Below are positions 17,455-47,500 of a stretch of 64,000 nt of DNA, one piece after another. Source of the stretch: Amyelois transitella (lineage: Eukaryota; Arthropoda; Insecta; Lepidoptera; Pyralidae); the NCBI RefSeq assembly GCF_032362555.1, contig NC_083507.1:1615001-1679000 (forward strand), written 5' to 3'. A program made the position numbers and the translations under genes. Under the pieces are notes generated by a model, which was not told where the DNA came from, did no database searches, and was given only the letters and a program-made list of their open reading frames with translations. Position 1 is the stretch's first letter, and every line of letters starts with the position of its first letter.

Positions 17455-18125
17455 ACTAGCGCATTGCGCGTGCACTTCATTCATAGGAACAATGTATTTG
17501 TAAACGCAATGATTCGTTAAACGATTGTCGGCTAGTGTTGGGGCAAGTTGATTGACTTTGACGCTCAAGTCTTTTGTTTTTCATGATGTAGCAACGGACA
17601 CAACTGGCTCTTGCGCGTGCACTTCACAAAACATTGTATTTGTAAACGCAATGATTCGTCAAACGATTGTCGGCTAGTGTTGGGGCAAGTTGATTGACAT
17701 TTAGGCTCAAATCTTTTGTTTTTCATGATGAAGCAACGGACACAACTGGCGCTTGTGCGTGCACTTCACAAAACAATGTATTTGTAAACGCAATGATTCG
17801 TTAAACGATTGCCGGCTAGTGTTGGGACAAGTTGATTGACTTTGAGGCTCAAGTCTTTTGTTTTTCATGATGAAGCAATGGACACAACTGGCGCTTGTGC
17901 GTGCACTTCACAAAACAATGTATTTGTAAACGCAATGATTCGTCAAACAAATGTCGGCTAGTGTTGGGGCAAGTTGATTGACATTTAGGCTCAAATCTTT
18001 TGTTTTTCATGATGAAGCAACGGACACAACTGGCTCTTGCGCGTGCACTTCACAAAACATTGTATTTGTAAACACAATGATTCGTCAAACGTTTGCCGGC
18101 TAGTGTTGGGACAAGTTGATTTTTT
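17455..18125 (+). repeat. Tandem array, 142-bp period, about five copies
   Basis: The marker TGTATTTGTAAAC occurs at 17493, 17635, 17777, 17919 and 18061, so the spacing is exactly 142 bp each time. Units differ by point changes only. No long ORF or known element is recognisable in the unit. A decayed extra unit may lie at about 18330-18475. It sits in the probable MVB12 intron 1. Confidence 0.85.
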
Positions 18126-20107: not shown

Positions 20108-23100
20108 ATGTCTAAAATGCTAAGCGCGCTGGACGGCGCGCTGCCCGACGAGCGGCCGCTCCTCTCGCTACTGATAGTGGAGAGCGTGGCCAAGTGTCCC
20201 ACAGGTTAGTGTCGTGTGCCTGAAGCTGACAGCTAGACAGGTGTAGGTAATGATAGCTCCAAGTTCAAAATGTTGAGCGGCCGCTCCTCTTGCTACTGAT
20301 AGTGGAGAGCGTGGCCAAGTGTCCCACAGGTTAGTGTCGTGTGCCTGAAGCTGACAGCTAGACAGGTGTAGGTAATGATAGCTCCAAGTTCAAAATGTTG
20401 AGCGGCCGCTCCTCTTGCTACTGATAGTGGAGAGCGTGGCCAAGTGTCCCACAGGTTAGTGTCGTGTGCCTGAAGCTGACAGCTAGACAGGTATAGGTAA
20501 TGATAGCTCCAAGTTCAAAATGTGGAGCGGCCGCTCCTCTCGCTACTGATAGTGGAGAGCGTGGCCAAGTGTCCCACAGGATAGTGTCGTGTTCCTGAAG
20601 CTGACAGCTAGACAGGTATAGGTAATGATAGCTCCAAGTTCAAAATGTTGAGCTGCCGCTCCTCTCGCTACTGATAGTGGAGAGCGTGGCCAAGTATCCC
20701 ACAGGTTAGTGTCGTGTGCCTGAAGCTGACAGCTAGACAGGTATAGGTAATGATAGCTCCAAGTTCAAAATGTTGAGCGGCCGCTCCTCTCGCTACTGAT
20801 AGTGGAGAGCGTGGCCAAGTGTCCCACAGGTTAGTGTCGTGTTTCTGAAGCTGACAGATAGATATAACCACCAAAATAACCACTCTTAAAAGTAAAGACT
20901 CTTAAGATTACTTCGAAAGATTGTAAATTGAGAAGAAATTTTGCTAACGTAATTCATTTCTGCCATTTAATATATCGCCAGGGACGGCATCTATTACCGC
21001 CTTCAAAAACGGAGGTTCTCAGTTTGTGTGTATTTATGTTTGTTCGCGATTACCTCGCGTTTCGCTGAACCGATTTTGATGCGGTTTTCAGAAACGTGTT
21101 TATTACACTTAGAAAAAAAATTTAGAAATAAACCGACTTCAAAAAATGAGGATATCGATTGGAGGCGGATCCCTTGTTTTACAAAAGTTATGTTTTTACT
21201 TTGTCGGTGGTTTTCGTATGGCGTGTTTTAAGATATCGCCACTCACCTCACCGTGGTGTGTTGCAGGGTACTGGCCGGTCAGCCGCACCTACGATGAAGA
21301 CGCGGACGCTGGACTCATGCGGCAGAACGGACTCTTCACCAAGAAACCTAGTCATTACATATGCTTGTCTAAGACTGAAGGTGAGATAAACATTATCCTT
21401 TGTATAAATGATGCTGAGTGATTGACTGATATACATATATCCGAAACCGTTTGCGATTTAATTTGGTTTGAAATTTCCTGATACATACATATAATCACGT
21501 CTTTATCCCTTATGGGGTAGGCATAACCTATAATCTTCAAAAGACTGAAGGCCACGTTTAGCTATATGGCTTAATGATGGAATTGAGATTCAAATAGCGA
21601 CAGGTTGCAAGCCCATTGCCTAAATGAAGAATCCGAAGTTTATAAGCCTATCCCTAAGTCGCCTTTTACGACACCCATGGAAATAAGAGGGAATATTGTA
21701 GTAAAATAGTGAATGTTGTTGTTATATCATCCAATTAGGTTCGGTATCGAACGATGATTGTCATCATTGGTCAACGGGTCAGAAACAGATTTGACCTTCA
21801 TCGTACAATGAGAGTGAACGTTATGATTTTTTTTTTAACTAGATCTTAGCCATTTGACCGTGATCTATATTTATAGCGACCGGTAAATACGCGTTTTTTT
21901 TTGTTTCAAATTGTTTTTAACATCAACTGGTTTAATTGAATAGATATATTTATGCAGTTAGATATTATATTTCTTAGTAAAACCAAGTTTACAACCTTAG
22001 ATTTTTTTAATTTCATTTGTCATCTTTGCGTGTTCCCGTTTGTACCGGTGTATGTTATTATAACAGCATCAATAGCTACTATTTTATCAAGTCATCATCT
22101 TACCCGTGCCGTGCATCATCTTACCGGTGCCGTGTGCATATAATCACGTCTATATCCCTTGCGGGGTAGACAGAGCCAACAGTCTTGTAAAGACTAATAG
22201 GCCACGTTCAGCTGTTTGGCTTTAAGATGGAATTGAGATTCAAATAGTGACAGGTTGCTAGCCCATCGCCTAAAAGAAGATTCCCAAGTTTATAAGCCTA
22301 CCCCTTAGTCGCCTTTTACGACATCAATGGGAAAGAGATGGAGTGGTCCTATTCTTTTTTCTATTCGTGTCGGGTACCACACGGCAATTTATCAAGTCAT
22401 TATCTTCATTATCCCAGGAGTGCCGGGTATGTTATTATACCCGCATCGATAGCTTTCACTTTATCAAGTAGGACCGCAACAATAGCTACTATTTTATCAA
22501 GTCGTCATCTTACCCAGGAGTGCCGGGTTACGTCACGGACGGCATGCTAATAGTCAGTAATATGTATGTTTGTTATATATTTAAACGAGCAATTCTTGTA
22601 TATATGTAATCAGGATCTCGGAAACGGCTCCAACGATTTTCATGAAAGTTACAGATAAGGGGCTTTTCGGCTCAAGGAATCGATTTCCTTGATAAATCGA
22701 TCCTAGGTTCGAGAAAAGCTCGGTTCCCAAGACATATAAACATTTTAAAAACCGCGTTTTAAGAAACTATATCAGCGCCATCTATAACGCGGATGTAACG
22801 ATGAATCATTTAAAAAAAACCTACTGAATATAAATTTCAAAAAACACGTTCTACCAAAAACAAAATACCGAGCAAAGCTCGGTCAACCAGGTACTGTTTG
22901 TTATTATAACAGCATCAATAGCTTCCATTATCAAGTCACCATCATACCCAGGTGTGCCGGGTTACGTCATGGACGGCGTGCTCATAGTGGGGGAGAGGGA
23001 GGCCGCCCCGGCCGGGTACAGCGTGGCGGGGCGCGCGGGCAAGCGGCGGCTGTGCACGCGCGTGTCGCGGCCGCAGCCCGCCGCCGCGTGCCCGCCCGTC

Positions 23101-35500: not shown

Positions 35501-38500
35501 CATCTTTTAGCCACAGTGCTCGGCCTCTTAGTACTTATTTTAGAGACTGTGGGCTCCGTCTACCCCATAAGGTACAAAGACGTGAGCGTATATACCTACA
35601 TATGTATGTAAAAATCTGCTGATTTAACTGAGATAGTGCACATTATTAACTGACTTCAAAAAAGGAGAACGTTCTCAAATTCGACTGTATATTTTTAACT
35701 GTTAACGGCTACCATTCCGTGTGGTTCCCGACATCTTAGAATAGGACCACTCCCTCTCTTTCCCATGGATGTCGTAAAAGGCGACTAAGGGCACGGATTC
35801 TAATAAACTCGAAACTTCTTTTAGGCGATGTGCTAACAACCTGCACACGGCCGGTACATGGCCGAAGTGGGATTCCAACCTGTGCATTTCTGCGCATCAC
35901 GCATTCTAACCACTTCACTGATTCGACTCGCCTACGCTCTCCATCATACATACCTATCGTCGACTGCATATAATTAGGTCCAATCATATCTTTATTCTGC
36001 GCCAAACCCTGATTCTGATTGAAACTCGGCATCTGATAGCCGATATTCGTCGGCGGAGGCGTATAAAAGTTCGACTGCAAATTCATAGATGGCGTTGTGT
36101 ACGCATTATTGAACGATTGGTCGGGTTTCCACCACGTAGGTTGGCACTCCCGCTGGTTGTTCAACCAATTCGGTTGCTGGGTGTTGAACAGCGATTGATT
36201 CTTGAAACTGTCATCGCGGAATATATTCTCGTTCTCTTGCGCGTTCTGCCAGTACTTGTATTGGTTCGCGAATCTCGGCGGCAGGTCGTTGAGGAAATTC
36301 TTTTTGTCGCCGGACATTTGATAATTGTGACCGAACTTCTGGACATCGTGGAACATGTCGTGACGGGAACTCTGCTTTTGTAATGCGGCCGTTCGCACGT
36401 CGATCTCCTTCGGGTTGACAACGGGCAGTCTGATGTTGCTGCCGACGCCTGAAATAAATAAATTTTAATGATTCCTTTCTGAGATATGAAGTTACATACA
36501 TACGGTCACGTCTATATCCGCTGTGGGGTAAACATAACAACAGTCTTGAAAAGACTGATCGGCCACGTTCAGCTATTTGGCTTAATGATAGAATTGAGAT
36601 TCAAATAGTGACAGGTTGCTAGCCCATCGCCCTTAAAAAAAGAATCCCAAGTTCGTAAGCCTATCCCTTAATCGCCTTTTACGACATCCATGGGAAAGAG
36701 ATGGAGTGAGTCCTATCCTTTTTTGTGCGTGTGCCGGGAACACACGGCACATAATATAAAGTTGATGAAAACAAACTTTTTTTTTTTTGGGAAAACTCAG
36801 GTAATTTAAAGCGGGAATCGAACCCAGACCTTTTGATACATTGTCAAAATTACAGAAATGTTTTAGTAATTCTTAAACACTTTTTTAAACATACAGCCTT
36901 ATTATTTTTTATAAGAAAGAATCTAAAGTCATGACGTATTACGATCACTATATTATTATAGTCTTCCTATTTTCTTTGTCTGTAAGTGTATGTGCTAATC
37001 TCGGAAAGTTATGGAAGGATTTTATTCCCGTTTGAAACGTTGGAAAGACTGTTCACAGACTAAGGTTTATATCTACAATATAGTTATTAATATTAGTTAG
37101 TTTATATCAATAATTATAGTTTTTATATACACGTGCAAAGCCGGGGCGGGTTGCTAGTTTACAATAAATAAAACTTACCTGGCGGCTGATAATTAGGATT
37201 ATAACTGATCCCCGCATTTTGTATTCCATAATTCTTCTGGAAGTTCATTCTCGGCTCGTTATAAGTCTGTGTTGCCATATTCGGCGCCCAATTACCCTGC
37301 TGAGGCGGGTGTTGGTAGTTTTGCTGAGGATTGGTAGGATTGGTAGTTTTTTGTTCCCTCTTCTCCTCCTTCTCCTTCTTGGGTTCCGGGTCCGTGTTGA
37401 CAAGGTGGGGATACCCGGCGGACTTGTCCTTCAGCGAGAGAATTCCCCCGGTTTTTCTGCCTATAGGGAGGTTAGCTAGGGACTTTATTGGTTTTGGTTG
37501 TATTATTTTGGGTTTCTCATCTTTGGTCTCGGTTTCGGCCGAGTCCGGTGTGGGCGGCGGCGTCACGAATTTCACCTGTCAACATACATACAAACATAAA
37601 ATCACGCCTCTTTGCCGGAGGGGTAGGCTGAGACTACCTCTTTCCATTTGCCACGATCTCTGCATACTTCCTTCGCTTCATCCACATTCATAACTCTCTT
37701 CATACAAGCTCGGCGGTTTCGGGTACTTTTGACCTGACCTTTTACCAGGACATCCTTAATTTGATCTAGATACGTTGGTCTAGGTCAATATTCACCTGTC
37801 AAATAGGTACAATATAACTAATAATGAAAACATTATTGTCCCAATACTAAATAACTTGATCCCTGTGACAACTGCCTATCCCTTAGTCGCCTTTTACGAC
37901 ATCCAAGTGATAGAGATGGAGTGGTCCTATTCTTTTTCTATTGGTGCCGGATACCTAAAGGCACTGTCGGGATTCACACAGCAAAAAAAAATTGTAAAAA
38001 AAAGAACGATTAAAGATGGTCTTTAGACTGGCTACAACCTCATCTCGGAGAGGAGCCTGTGGGATCGGCTTTGGCTTGGACCACTGACAGAATTGAGATT
38101 CAAACAGTGACAGGTTGCAAGCCCATCGTCTTAAAGAAGAATCCCGAGCATTTATAAGCATATCCTTTATTAGTGGTCCTATTCTTTTTCATATTGAACC
38201 GGTGCCGGGAACCACACGGTCTTACATATATATACATATAGTCACGTCTAAATCCCTTGCGGGGTAGACAGAGCCAACAGTCTTGAAAAGACTGAATGGC
38301 CACGTTCAGCTATTTGGCTTAATGATAGAACGATATAATGATAGAATTCCACATGTTCTTTGTGATTTTAATTCACCATCGCCACAAGCCTTTCCCTTTT
38401 ACGACATCCGTGGAAAAGATATGGAATGGTCCCATTTTAAAGGTGCCGGGAACCACACGACACCGTGTGTATGAGAGCAACGTCACCTGTTTGTTAGACT

Positions 38501-41500
38501 CCTCCTGCTTCCTCATGATGGCCGCCATTGCGATGTTGACGCGAGGCTTCTTCTCCTTCTTATCCTCACTCTTGTTGCATTCTTCACCAGCCTCCGGCTC
38601 CTGCGATATCATCAGGTTAAGATGACTTGGATTACTATTTAGACGATATTATCCTTGGCGCGAACGCTTTATTTGTTTGTAATATCTTTATTGTATAGAA
38701 ATTTAAACAGTAACAAGAAAATAGTAAGTACATAGTTATAAAAGAAACAAATCACTTGCAATGGCGGACTTATCCCATGAAGGGATCTCTTCCAGTCAAC
38801 CGGCAAACAATAAAGGAAATAGATAATTCAGTAAAAAGCGGCAAGTCACAGATATTAGCAACAATATAATAATATACTAACAGAAATACATATCTTAACT
38901 GAATAAACAACAATAACTAAACTCAACTCAACGCTATTATCCTACTAATATTATAAATGCGAAAGTTTGTATGTCAGGATGACAATATGGATGTTTGTTA
39001 CTCTTTCACGCAAAAACTACTGAACCGATTACGATGAAATTTGGTATGTGGGTAGCTGAAGACCCAGAATAACACATAGGCTACGCTTTTTTATCCCAGA
39101 GTTCCCGCGGGATTGATAGGGTTTCCATGCGGACGAAGTCGCGGGCGGCCTCTAGTCTTAAATAATACAGAGGGGTTAGTGCGAGTTTTAATCGATCAAA
39201 CGCGTCGACTAAGTTAACGCGAATTTAAAACCCTATGTCATTGAGTATGTATCACGTAACACGCTTCGAACTTACTTCGAGGCGTACTAAATCTGTGTAA
39301 TATGTCCCGTATATATTTATTCCGATTATAAAGTCATACAGCTGAATGTGTCTTTCAGTCTTTTCAAGAATGTTGACTAGGTCTACCTTGCAAGGAATAT
39401 CGACGTGACTATATGTATGTATTCATGTACAAATATATATAGCACAATTGGCGGACTTAGTGCTAGAAGCATTATCTACCTGTCAACCAGAGACGGGAGA
39501 ACTTTATGTGGGGTCAAACAAAATTAATATATTTATATTTTACTAAATATAATAAACATACATAAAAACTACAAAACAAAAAGACTATAAATATAAAAAG
39601 ACTAGCTGTGCCCGCGACTTCGTCCGCGTGGAATAGTTATTTTGGGCATCATTGAAGCCCCCAAGGATGAATAATTTCCCCCGTTTTTTTTCACATATTC
39701 CATTACTTCTTTGCTCCTTATAGTTATAGCGTGATGTTAAATAGCCTAAAGCCTTCCTCGATAAATGGTCTATTCGACGCAAAAATATTTTTTTCAATTC
39801 GAACCAGTAGTTCCTGAGATTAGCGCGTTCAAACAAACAAACTCTTCAGCTTTATAATATTAGTATAGATTATTCACCTGGTCATCTTGTGTAGAAGCCA
39901 ATGCCCGTTCTTCCCTCGCTCGTTCCAACGACCCCTGTGGTTTCAGTATACCAACGCGTTTCTCGCGAACTGAAGAAAAATAATTATTAATTTAATTTGG
40001 AACTAAGAAAATAATAAATTTAATTTTAAATTATTTATACGGCCTTTGTGGCGCAGCGGTAGTACGCTTGCCTGTGACACCGGAGGTCCCGGGTTCGAAT
40101 CCCGGCCAGGGTGTGATGAGAAAATAACTTTTTGTAATTGGTCTGGGTCTTGGATGTTTATATGATAAAATATAGTATCGTTGAGTTAGTATCTCGTAAC
40201 ACAAGTCTCGAACTTACTTCGAGGCTAACTCAATCTGTGTAATTTGTCCCGTACATATTTATTATTTATGCCATTTATTTATACAAAGCTGAAGACAGAA
40301 GTCCGTAAAAAAATTTAAAATGTCAGATCCCAAGACTTGAAACAGGGTGCAACTGGGAACACGCAAAGATGAGAGGGTCAAAACGATAATTGCTCTAAAT
40401 CGAGAAAAAATCCTATAATTTTCTAAAATTTTTGCCATTATTGGCGGCTCCTCGTCGCTGTCCCGCGCCCCGGGCTCGCCCACAGACACTAGCTGACGTC
40501 AGAGAGACATGTACCACTAGAGCCCCGACCTTTCTCCCGGAAGTCCGCCTCGGAGATCACTATGGGCGGCGGCGGCTCCTCGTCGCTGTCCCGCGCCCCG
40601 GGCTCGCCCACAGACACTAGCTGACGTCAGAGAGACATGTACCACTAGAGCCCCGACCTTTCTCCCGGAAGTCCGCCTCGGAGATCACTATGGGCGGCGG
40701 CGGCTCCTCGTCGCTGTCCCGCGCCCCGGGCTCGCCCACAGACACTAGCTGACGTCAGAGAGACATGTACCACTAGAGCCCCGACCTTTCTCGCGGAAGT
40801 CCGCCTCGGAGATCACTATGGGCGGCGGCGGCTCCTCGTCGCTGTCCCGCGCCCCGGGCTCGCCCACAGACACTAGCTGACGTCAGAGAGACATGTACCA
40901 CTAGAGCCCCGACCTTTCTCCCGGAAGTCCGCCTCGGAGATCACTATGGGCGGCGGCGGCTCCTCGTCGCTGTCCCGCGCCCCGGGCTCGCCCACAGACA
41001 CTAGCTGACGTCAGAGAGACATGTACCACTAGAGCCCCGACCTTTCTCGCGGAAGTCCGCCTCGGAGATCACTATGGGCGGCGGCGGCTCCTCGTCGCTG
41101 TCCCGCGCCCCGGGCTCGCCCACAGACAACTCGGCTAACGATTCGGACAGTTGCTCCCCGCCCACGGTGGCAGCCGTAAATGTAAGCTCGCCGTTTTCTT
41201 CTCTGTCAAATAGAATACTATACTCTGTTAAATAAATTCTTCTGAGGATCAATAAAGTTTTAAACAAATAAATTAATTAAAATATGTACATAATACATAA
41301 AATACTATCTATTTTGTAAGTCGCATTTCAATGAAATAATATACCTACAAGTCAATGAAATAACGACCTTATCACAAGTGAATTAAACTTAAAATCCAAA
41401 AACAAAATATCTCCAGCTGTCTCGCTCGTAATAAGCGTAATTCAAAAAGCGCGGTTCGCTTTGATAGGCGGATAAGTTCAAATTATTGCGCTATAAAAAA

Positions 41501-44500: not shown

Positions 44501-47500
44501 GGGTCGTGTGCAGATAAACTTTCAACCTTATTGAAATGTCATAAGTCTGGCAGTCGCAGGCTTCCCTCTATAGGCAAATCTTATGCAAATAATGAGAGAC
44601 AACGATATCTCGATCGACAATTATCGGGCCCAGTTCGGCCATCGTTGATTACCGTCTCTTTCTGTTTTGTTATGTTATAATATGTCATAGAATAATAAAC
44701 TGTTTTACTTAGTAATCATTGGTATTAAAGACCGTATTCATTTGATGGAATATTTTTTCTTTTTAAATATGCATGTGTGTGTGTGTCTAGTGGAACCACA
44801 GTGCACGCTATTTTAACCCGTAAGAATTTTAAAACTATGACTGCAGATATGAACGCGATCGTACATAAAATCACGCCTCTTTCCCGGAGGGGTAGGCTGA
44901 GACTACCTCTTTCCACTTGCCACGATCTCTGCATACTTCCTCCGCTTCTTTCACATTCATAATTCTCTTCATAGAAGCTCAGCGGTGTTCCTTAATGGCT
45001 TTTCAAGAAAAAATAATCCACAAAGGTTGCTAAGGTCTGACGGGAGATTTACCCAATTCAGAATCATGCGCATCCGTGCTTCTCTCCAGAGAGTTTAGGA
45101 TGTGATCATGATTAACGCCAGGGGGAAGAAGATATTACTTGTATACATACATACATACATATAATTACGTCTATATCTCTTGCGGGGTAGACAGAGCCAA
45201 CAGTCTTGAAAAGACTGATAGGCCACATTGAGCTATTTGCCTTAATGATAGAATTGAGATTTAAATAGTGACAGGTTGCTAGCCCGTCGCCTAAAAGAAG
45301 AATCCCAAGTTTATAATCATATCCCTTAGTCGCCTTTAACAACATCCATGGGAACGAGATGGAGTGGTCCTACCTAACGTATATATGCGTGCGGAATGCC
45401 ATTCAAAAATGAATCTTGATATGTTTACATTAAGATTCATTTTCAAACAGACAGTCGTAGGTATGTTTATTTCAATCACTTACTTAGCGGGTTGAGTCTA
45501 TTGTCTAAAAAACGGTAGAAAAAAAACAGAGATGTTACATAGGCGGGACTTATCGCAAATGCAATCTCTTCCAGTCAACTTAACAAGACACCCTGTATAG
45601 TTGTGTGTATGAAAGGTGTAGCTGTTCAAGACACCCTGTATAGTCGTTTGTATGAAATGTGTAGCTGTCCAAGACACCCTGTATAGTCGTTTGTATGAAA
45701 TGTGTAGCTGTCCAACACACCCTGTACAGTCGTTTGTATGAAATGTGTAGCTGTCCAAGACACCCTGTACAGTCGTTTGTATGAAATGTGTAGCTGTCCA
45801 AGACACCCTGTACAGTCGTTTGTATGAAATGTGTAGCTGTCCAAGACACCCTGTATAGTCGTTTGTATGAAATGTGTAGCTGTCCAAGACACCCTGTACA
45901 GTCGTTTGTATGAAATGTGTAGCTGTCCAAGACACCCTGTATAGTCGTTTGTATGAAATGTGTAGCTGTCCAACACACCCTGTATAGTCGTTTGTATGAA
46001 ATGTGTAGCTGTCCAAGACACCCTGTACAGTCGTTTGTATGAAATGTGTAGCTGTCCAAGACACCCTGTATAGTCGTTTGTATGAAATGTGTAGCTGTCC
46101 AAGACACCCTGTATAGTCGTTTGTATGAAATGTGTAGCTGTCCAAGACACCCTGTATAGTCGTTTATATGAAATGTGTAGTTGTCAAAGACACCCTGTAT
46201 AGTTAGTTGTGTGTATGAAATGTGTAGCTGTCCAAGACACCCTGTACAGTCGTTTGTATGAAATGTGTAGTTGTCAAAGACACCCTGTATAGTTAGTTGT
46301 GTGTATGAAATGTGTAGCTGTCCAAGACACCCTGTATAGTTGGGTGTATGAAATGTGTAGTTGACAAAGACACCCTGTATAGTTAGTTGTGTGTATGAAA
46401 TGTGTAGCTGTCCAAGACACCCTGTATAGTCGTTTGTATGAAATGTGTAGCTGTCCAAGACACCCTGTATTGTATAGTCGTTTGTATGAAATGTGAAAAC
46501 GCGCAGTGTCCGGCGCCTGCCACCCATACTCACACGTGTCGGCGCGCAGAGCGTGCGCCCGCGCAGCGGAGGCGGCGCGCGCCAGCGCCGGCCACAGCGC
46601 GGGCGCGCGCCACGCCCGCCAGCGCAGCGCCGCGGGCGCAGCTGTCAGCCACGACGCCCACACCTTCACTGGGGAACGTATATACATATAATGTCGTCAC
46701 AGCACTGAATTACAGCAGCAACCAGCCATCGATGTTATATTAGACGGGAATGAATGGAAGCGATTCTATATCTACACTAAGCCACTCTATTGATAAAGAG
46801 AAAAGATATCTTGTTCTATCTCTATACCAGCTACCTAAGCACTTTTCAAGACTAGTACTTAGGTAGCTTGTAGCTTGTAACAGTTTTACAAATACTAATA
46901 TATAAGATACTAGAGGCCGCCCGCGACTTCGTCCGCATGGAAACCCTATCAATCCCGCGGGAACTCCGGGATAAAAAGTAAAAGTTACCTATATGTCATT
47001 CTTCAGCTACCTACATACAAAATTTCATCGTAATCGGTTCAGTAGTTTTTGCGTGAAAGAGTAACAAACATCGATACTGACATCCTGACATACAAACTTT
47101 CGCATCTATACTAATATTATAAAGCTGAAGAGTTTGTTTTGTTTGTTTGTTTGTTTGTTTAAACGCGCTAATCTCAGAAACTACTGAACCGATTTGAATA
47201 ATTCTTTCACTGTTAGATAGTCTATTTATCGAGGAAGGCTATAGGCTACATTTTATCCCGGATTTCCTACGGGAAACGTCAACAATGCAGGTGCAAGTTG
47301 AATGAGTCGGCCATCTGCAAGCTTTCCACGCGAACGCTGCGCAAACCAACAATGATATAGTAAAACAACTAGAGGCCGCCCGCGACTTCGTCCGCATGGA
47401 AACCCTATCAATCCCGCGGGAACTCTGGGATAAAAAGTAGCCTATGTGTTATTCTGGGTCTTCAGCTACCTACATACCAAATTTCATGGTAATTGGTTCA

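What the first reader, a model, noticed from the sequence alone, without database searches (positions are those of the whole stretch)
40441..41130. A second array of the same design, 128 bp x6, at SMG7 exon 13
SMG7 exon 13's 3' coding end, donor and about 40 bp of intron are also repeated six times with a constant period. As in MVB12, the functional unit is the 5'-most in transcript order. Two unrelated genes 15-20 kb apart showing the same architecture, similar period and same copy number is unexpected. It suggests a shared mechanism, such as replication slippage or rolling-circle duplication at G/C-rich exon ends.
Basis: partly seen in the sequence, partly recalled or inferred. Interest (0 to 1): 0.75.

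Follow-up and report, generated by a model that had tools for sequence, protein, structure and literature searches.

The report
Exon ends repeated into following introns
The end of a coding segment of an insect gene, with the start of its intron, is copied about five times into that intron, and the same arrangement recurs at many other genes of this genome.

Summary
The array is real: window 40443-41128, period exactly 128 bp, five full units plus a 46-nt partial (5.36 copies, not 6), units identical except at one synonymous site. It repeats the 3' end of an SMG7-like exon (minus strand) with the start of its intron; the unit joined to the rest of the exon is the 5'-most. Its only match in the 327-Mb assembly is itself.

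It is not a curiosity of two neighbouring genes. In 19 arbitrary 10-kb stretches, 7 of 38 predicted exons have a same-strand copy within 2 kb downstream, 0 upstream, 0 inverted; with the window 9, 1 and 0 of 62. Genome-wide, donor octamer AGGTGAGT found twice at about 110-170 bp spacing gives 37 loci, 16 with chains of copies; at 14 of the 16 the repeated end is an open coding frame. Two acceptor octamers gave 2 chains at 46 loci, one of them again a donor array.

Best reading: ordinary tandem duplication is tolerated where it straddles a donor, because the first donor still works and the extra copies fall in the intron. A mutational hotspot at exon ends is not excluded.

The parts
40443..41128 (-). 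SMG7 tandem array: 5 units of 128 bp plus a 46-nt partial
   Evidence: TRF; units listed
41001..41128 (-). Unit 1 (5'-most in transcript), contiguous with the upstream exon; 87 nt up to the candidate donor, then 41 nt
41042..41202 (-). SMG7 exon, from acceptor TTTGACAG to candidate donor AAAG|GTCGGG
   Evidence: read by eye; ORF; donor weak and phase not matched to the next recognised exon
40489..41000 (-). Units 2-5: downstream copies, each with its own copy of the candidate donor
40443..40488 (-). Truncated sixth copy (46 nt, exon sequence only), followed by a different sequence, AATAATGG...
38488..38601 (-). Next recognised SMG7 exon, phase 0 at CGCAG|GAG
39879..39969 (-). Possible small intervening exon that would reconcile the phases (unproven)
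   Evidence: best of the listed candidates; coding score low
20150..20862 (+). MVB12 exon array: 5 units of 125 bp plus an 88-nt partial; unit 4 has lost its donor (GT to GA)
   Evidence: first donor joins the next exon in phase (read by eye)
22042..22988 (+). Acceptor-side case: decayed copies of the intron end plus exon start upstream of the next MVB12 exon
   Evidence: the only upstream hit
17455..18121 (+). 142-bp x 4.7 array, not at a recognised exon (comparison)

Best explanation
A tandem duplication with its left breakpoint in the exon and its right breakpoint in the intron created a second copy of exon end, donor and intron start. It then grew to about five copies by unequal exchange or slippage. 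The spliceosome keeps using the first donor, so the mRNA is unchanged and the extra copies are carried in the intron as a minisatellite that is homogenised and later decays. The same thing happens at many genes of this genome. It is seen mainly on the donor side because a duplicated acceptor, or a duplication wholly inside an exon, would more often damage the transcript. Shown: the arrays, their position, their recurrence and the donor bias. Inferred: first-donor use, the duplication mechanism and the selective filter.
For: Array anatomy. The same design at PI4KB (L009, six donors at 171-173 bp spacing), in an MTA-like gene at two exons (L018), and in L005, L011, L012 and L019, all from arbitrary stretches; in six of the nine downstream cases the copied part reaches the donor in the alignments. 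Exons with a downstream, upstream or inverted copy: 9, 1 and 0 of 62; outside the window 7, 0 and 0 of 38. Genome-wide donor-octamer chains: 16 of 37 loci, 14 of the 16 with an open coding frame at the repeated end, six of the 16 with a Pfam hit over the cut-off and four more below it. Acceptor octamers: 0 of 29 and 2 of 17 loci form chains; 16/37 against 2/46, p 2.3e-5. Use of the second donor would add a stop in 9 of 11 arrays and a frameshift in 7 of 11, so the first donor must usually win. The first donor joins the next exon in phase at MVB12, PI4KB, MTA-a and the UBE3-like gene (contexts, read by eye). Copy identity ranges from 68% to over 99%, as expected for a continuing process with decay.
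Against: Exon downstream copies exceed G/C-matched non-exon segments by an odds ratio of 3.5 (9/62 against 23/500, p 0.005). Slower decay, since one copy is under selection, can explain perhaps two-fold of that (my estimate); the rest is not explained by a filter alone. No RNA data: first-donor use is inferred. At SMG7 itself the candidate donor is weak and its phase does not fit the next recognised exon. Last copies are truncated in SMG7 and MVB12, which a single clean duplication does not give. In three of the nine downstream cases (L011, L012, second L018 exon) the aligned copy stops 52, 72 and 12 nt short of the donor.
Confidence: 0.62

Rival explanations
1. Exon 3' ends are a mutational hotspot for nucleosome- or Okazaki-sized tandem duplication, for instance through transcription, R-loops or chromatin at the exon-intron step, so the supply as well as the survival of duplications is raised there.
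For: Residual 3.5-fold odds over G/C-matched DNA. 14 of 16 octamer chain loci have a coding exon end although 0 of 6 AGGTGAGT in 254 kb lay at a predicted exon end, two of the 6 being inside decayed exon copies (judged). Seven exon spacings lie at 125-206 bp.
Against: Duplications not recognised as exonic have similar spacing (112, 132, 132, 142, 149, 164, 179 bp). Persistence and detection favour exon copies. The octamer search prefers donors. Arrays of 31, 44, 47 and 70 bp also occur.
Confidence: 0.2
2. The arrays are kept by selection: extra donors recruit U1 snRNP, protect the intron from premature polyadenylation, or tune output through unproductive splicing to later donors and NMD.
For: Donors are intact in 5 of 5 full SMG7 units, 6 of 6 PI4KB units and 7 of 7 Hsp110-like units. 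Use of the second donor would give a stop in 9 of 11. SMG7 is itself an NMD factor (recalled).
Against: Intact donors are expected in young arrays. MVB12 unit 4 lost its donor. Older copies have decayed (L011, L012). The genes named here share no evident function.
Confidence: 0.1
3. Assembly or amplification artefact.
For: No raw reads could be seen.
Against: 33 contigs for 327 Mb, contigs 1-20 being 9.5-13.9 Mb long. Copies carry variants and graded divergence from over 99% to 68%. The arrays sit repeatedly at exon ends.
Confidence: 0.03

Closest known systems
IFI6 (6-16) minisatellite with multiple splice donors, human (Turri et al. 1995, title seen in a reference list; passages of PMC4526556)
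   Same: A tandem array at an exon end in which repeat units serve as splice donors
   Different: There the citing paper says two downstream repeat units are used as donors for isoforms; it is one gene, and unit sizes were not seen here. Here many genes are affected, units are mostly longer than 100 bp, and use of later donors is not shown
Internal tandem repeats at exon-intron boundaries of human segmental-duplication genes (De Grassi and Ciccarelli 2009, PMC2812944; outline and passages)
   Same: Tandem repeats at exon-intron boundaries that alter gene structure
   Different: Average unit 30 bp, 4 copies; restricted to recent paralogues in segmental duplications; no donor-side bias in the passages seen
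[quoted passage not shown] potato RdRp case PMC4974935; abstract and introduction)
   Same: A tandem duplication across an exon-intron boundary
   Different: [quoted passage not shown] here the donor side is duplicated and the copies lie in the old intron

Membership tests
Minisatellite / VNTR | Head-to-tail copies of a unit with high identity | tested here: met
   5.36 copies of 128 bp, one variable site
Minisatellite / VNTR | Copy number varies between individuals | not testable with these tools
   one assembly only
Splice-donor minisatellite (IFI6 type) | Each unit carries a donor at the end of an exon | tested here: inconclusive
   units carry AAAG|GTCGGG, but this donor is weak and its phase unmatched; the donor of unit 1 fits at MVB12 and PI4KB
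Splice-donor minisatellite (IFI6 type) | Later units are used as donors in mRNA | not testable with these tools
   no RNA data
Intron gain by tandem duplication | A new intron is created | not tested
   no relative or RNA available; copies lie downstream of the exon, in its intron
Transposable or introner element | Same sequence at many loci | tested here: not met
   one match, the window itself (that search skips very common words); array units differ from gene to gene

The most novel reading that the evidence does not exclude
In this genome the 3' ends of coding exons are preferred sites for repeated, roughly nucleosome-sized tandem duplication coupled to transcription or splicing, so a sizeable fraction of introns begins with living or decayed copies of the preceding exon end and a run of spare donors.
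Probability: 0.2. Interest if true: 0.8.

Novelty: new variant of a known kind. Interest (0 to 1): 0.58.

Why it matters
Partial exon duplications that straddle a splice site are raw material proposed for intron gain, alternative donors and new exons, and the papers read here cite only scattered cases of intron gain by this route (passages, introduction). A genome that carries many such copies, from over 99% to 68% identical, makes it possible to test how splicing chooses among repeated donors and why donor-side but rarely acceptor-side duplications survive.

Tried and rejected
Rejected: a transposable element behind the array (one match). A special significance of equal copy number (5.36 against 5.7, and 2 to about 18 or 24 elsewhere). 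The common repeat just upstream of the MVB12 and 142-bp arrays as a cause: what looks by eye like a copy of it also lies at about 39.6-39.8 kb, but not adjacent to the SMG7 array. An 'in-frame cassette' reading of SMG7: 87 nt of exon per unit is a multiple of three and CTAG precedes each copy, but the pseudo-intron would be only 41 nt; not pursued.

Led nowhere: Pkinase family search as an exon sampler, since it does not score short repeated exon ends apart. Pfam gives nothing for the HECT-like L005 exon, the integrin-like L026 exon, L044 and the DOCK-like L049 exon, so those names, like Hand, USP22, SMC2, CLASP, FBXL, MTA and PLA2G6, are recalled; Hand and USP22 peptides were never scanned. 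Literature: nine searches; of these 63, 85 and 95 returned no paper and 36 one unrelated paper. That is a limit of the terms as much as evidence. Zhuo et al. 2007 (human introns from tandem arrays) is not held and is known here by title only.

Results against the reading: non-exon DNA also carries local direct copies (20 and 24 of 600, some of them being copies of exons themselves; 15 and 8 of 250, or 8 and 4 of 162 without likely repeats). Read-backwards controls of the octamer searches are not empty (13 against 56, 13 against 29, 28 against 71, 12 against 44), and for one acceptor octamer the control exceeds the query (62 against 19). Of the 17 loci, two are a real-looking donor with an unrelated second octamer (L030, L033) and three are unclear or TE-like (L025, L028, L031). 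Nine of the 22 loci were not read. At 408-438 bp spacing there are 44 hits at 14 loci; nine of these loci are arrays of shorter period or were seen at shorter spacing, five are isolated. One array (L050) covers a stop codon and 3'UTR, not a coding donor. The independent octamer AGGTAAGT did not complete.

Rows dropped before counts: L001 (the window itself) and L014 (a 3.8-kb tandem repeat) from the exon and control counts. Five spans of array or decayed copies were dropped and thirteen masked. Coding segments under 20 bits were left out. The 54-exon list was chosen by hand; one search repeats it on all 62 predicted segments with the same 9 and 1. The window was chosen for its arrays, so 2 of the 9 are ascertained; the 7 of 38 outside are not. 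Sub-threshold cases: two downstream that look like real decayed copies (L009 1389, L018 2221), one downstream 15-mer, two upstream of 22 and 16 nt.

Full report
Observation. The stretch 40443-41128 is a tandem array of constant period: 128 bp, no indels, 99% matches. Read on the minus strand, the strand of the gene, it has five complete units and a 46-nt partial. The first unit continues the exon that starts at 41202; the last, partial copy stops inside exon sequence and is followed by a different sequence. Units 1-5 differ at one position (C, G, C, G, G), synonymous in the functional copy; the alternating order suggests exchange among units (inference). Pfam places EST1 and EST1_DNA_bind domains on this gene (SMG7-like) and the MVB12 domain on the neighbour. 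The assembly is 327 Mb in 33 contigs and the array matches only its own place. I take the organism to be lepidopteran from contig number and repeat types; that is recall, not a call.

Anatomy. Each unit has 87 nt up to the candidate donor AAAG|GTCGGG and 41 nt beyond. That donor is weak (3.1 on a small PWM, against 11.3 and 10.3 for MVB12 and PI4KB, which are in the PWM's own list) and ends in phase 1, while the next recognised exon begins in phase 0. A small intervening exon or another donor within the unit would solve this; neither is proven. MVB12 has the same layout with 125-bp units and an in-phase first donor; its fourth unit has lost the GT.

Is it special to these two genes? I took 20 arbitrary 10-kb stretches, one on each of contigs 1-20 at 3.0 Mb. 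By TRF (periods up to 500) the only array there with period of 60 or more and at least three copies was a third case: six donors at 171-173 bp spacing at the 3' end of a phosphatidylinositol 4-kinase beta exon, donor AAG|GTGAGA (identity by sequence to solved PI4KB). More sensitive scans found two-copy or decayed cases at two exons of an MTA-like gene (L018; BAH domain) and in L005, L011, L012 and L019. In six of the nine downstream cases the copied part reaches the donor; in the second L018 exon, L011 and L012 the alignment stops 12, 52 and 72 nt short.

Counts. One stretch (L014, a 3.8-kb repeat) was left out, so 19 stretches and the window were counted. A codon model gave 62 predicted exons of 20 bits or more after dropping array copies. 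Same-strand copies within 2 kb: downstream 9, upstream 1, inverted 0 and 0; outside the window 7, 0, 0 and 0 of 38 (downstream against upstream p 0.021 and 0.016). A hand-made list of 54 exons gave the same 9 and 1, and 7 and 0 of 31 outside the window. Non-exon segments: 20 right, 24 left, 5 and 7 inverted of 600; with G/C of 0.43 or more, 15 and 8 of 250. The downstream rate exceeds the G/C-matched rate (9/62 against 23/500, p 0.005; 7/38, p 0.003); the upstream rate does not (1/62).

Genome-wide. AGGTGAGT twice with a gap of 100-130 bp gave 56 hits at 17 loci, 6 of them chains. I read all 17. Nine are exon-end cases with a recognisable peptide: Hsp110-like, BTB, alpha-macroglobulin-like, integrin-alpha-like, EGF-repeat, CYFIP, Hand-like, myosin and USP22-like. 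Pfam supports six of the seven that were scanned; integrin gave no hit, and Hand and USP22 were not scanned. At USP22 the exon's own first donor reads GTCAGT and the octamer appears in later copies; at the Hand-like locus the fetched piece began inside the array, so its first copy was not seen. Three more of the 17 are plausible, two are a donor with an unrelated second octamer, three are unclear or TE-like. A gap of 131-161 gave 71 hits at 22 loci, 11 of them chains. Of these 22, 13 were read: ten chains and C22, the eleventh chain (C29) and C31:1012k; nine were not. Joined, the two searches give 37 different loci and 16 different chain loci. In 14 of the 16 the repeated end is an open coding frame; in two (C27:5343k, C23:6558k) it may be a first or untranslated exon. 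Pfam hits over the cut-off support six of the 16 (HSP70, BTB, FragX_IP, glycogen debranching enzyme, radial spoke 3, a helicase HA2 domain), and hits below the cut-off four more (RME-8, C1, HEAT, LRR). Acceptor octamers with a gap of 100-130: TTTTCAGG 29 hits at 29 loci, no chain; TTTGCAGG 19 hits at 17 loci with two chains, one of which is a 44-bp donor array at a RING-like exon. Chains at 16 of 37 against 2 of 46 loci: p 2.3e-5. The two donor searches cover a wider range of gaps than the acceptor searches; at the same gap alone it is 6 of 17 against 2 of 46. In 254 kb AGGTGAGT occurs 6 times, 0 at a predicted exon end, two of them in decayed exon copies, so random placement would not put nearly all chains at exon ends; that sample is small.

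Why the first unit. In 9 of 11 arrays examined, splicing from the second donor would bring an in-frame stop, and in 7 of 11 a frameshift; in the UBE3-like gene it would do neither. So correct expression needs the first donor in ten of eleven. Exon definition and first-come splicing (established ideas, not tested here) would favour it, while a duplicated acceptor puts a competing AG in front of the true one. That gives a simple filter: donor-straddling duplications survive, acceptor-straddling ones mostly do not. The one acceptor-side case found, upstream of the next MVB12 exon, has the true copy last, as the filter predicts.

What remains open. The filter explains the direction but not all of the excess over G/C-matched DNA; slower decay of a pair with one conserved copy may give about two-fold (my estimate). 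Seven exon spacings (125, 128, 150, 158, 171, 174, 206 bp) and seven not recognised as exonic (112, 132, 132, 142, 149, 164, 179 bp) lie in one range, near nucleosome or Okazaki size; longer spacings of 241 to 1343 bp occur at L011, L015, L019, L021 and at window places near 9.95, 22 and 63.1 kb. That hints at a general small-duplication process in this genome. A hotspot at exon ends is possible and would be the more surprising result.

Known relatives. Splice-donor minisatellites are known at single genes (IFI6, passages), and internal repeats at exon-intron boundaries are described for human segmental-duplication genes with 30-bp units (passages). Tandem duplication across a boundary can create introns (abstract and introduction of PMC4974935). 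What I did not find described, with searches, is a genome in which donor-side copies are this common and acceptor-side ones rare. I therefore file it as a new variant of a known kind.

Noticed in passing
L014 (C13:3000001-3010000): A tandem repeat of about 3.8 kb fills the stretch (6.2 kb aligned to itself at 98%); not identified.
   Followed up: no
window 45584-46495: 43-bp x 20.8 minisatellite inside the SMG7 gene next to a G/C-rich coding-like stretch at 46502-46675 (minus).
   Followed up: no
window 17455-18121: 142-bp x 4.7 array upstream of MVB12, directly after what looks like a copy of a common repeat; not at a recognised exon.
   Followed up: partly
L005 1260-1644 (minus): UBE3/HECT-like exon (name recalled) whose decayed copy would extend the exon by 174 nt in frame without a stop if its donor were used.
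   Followed up: partly
C29:4496068-4496497, C10:10037071-10037254, C28:5137931-5138135: Exon-end donor arrays with much shorter units: 31, 44 and about 47 bp.
   Followed up: partly
L050 (C11:6597800-6598350): 102-bp array spanning a stop codon and 3'UTR, about ten copies.
   Followed up: no
C10:8160911-8161174: 128-bp repeat, three copies of an acceptor-like octamer; not read further.
   Followed up: no
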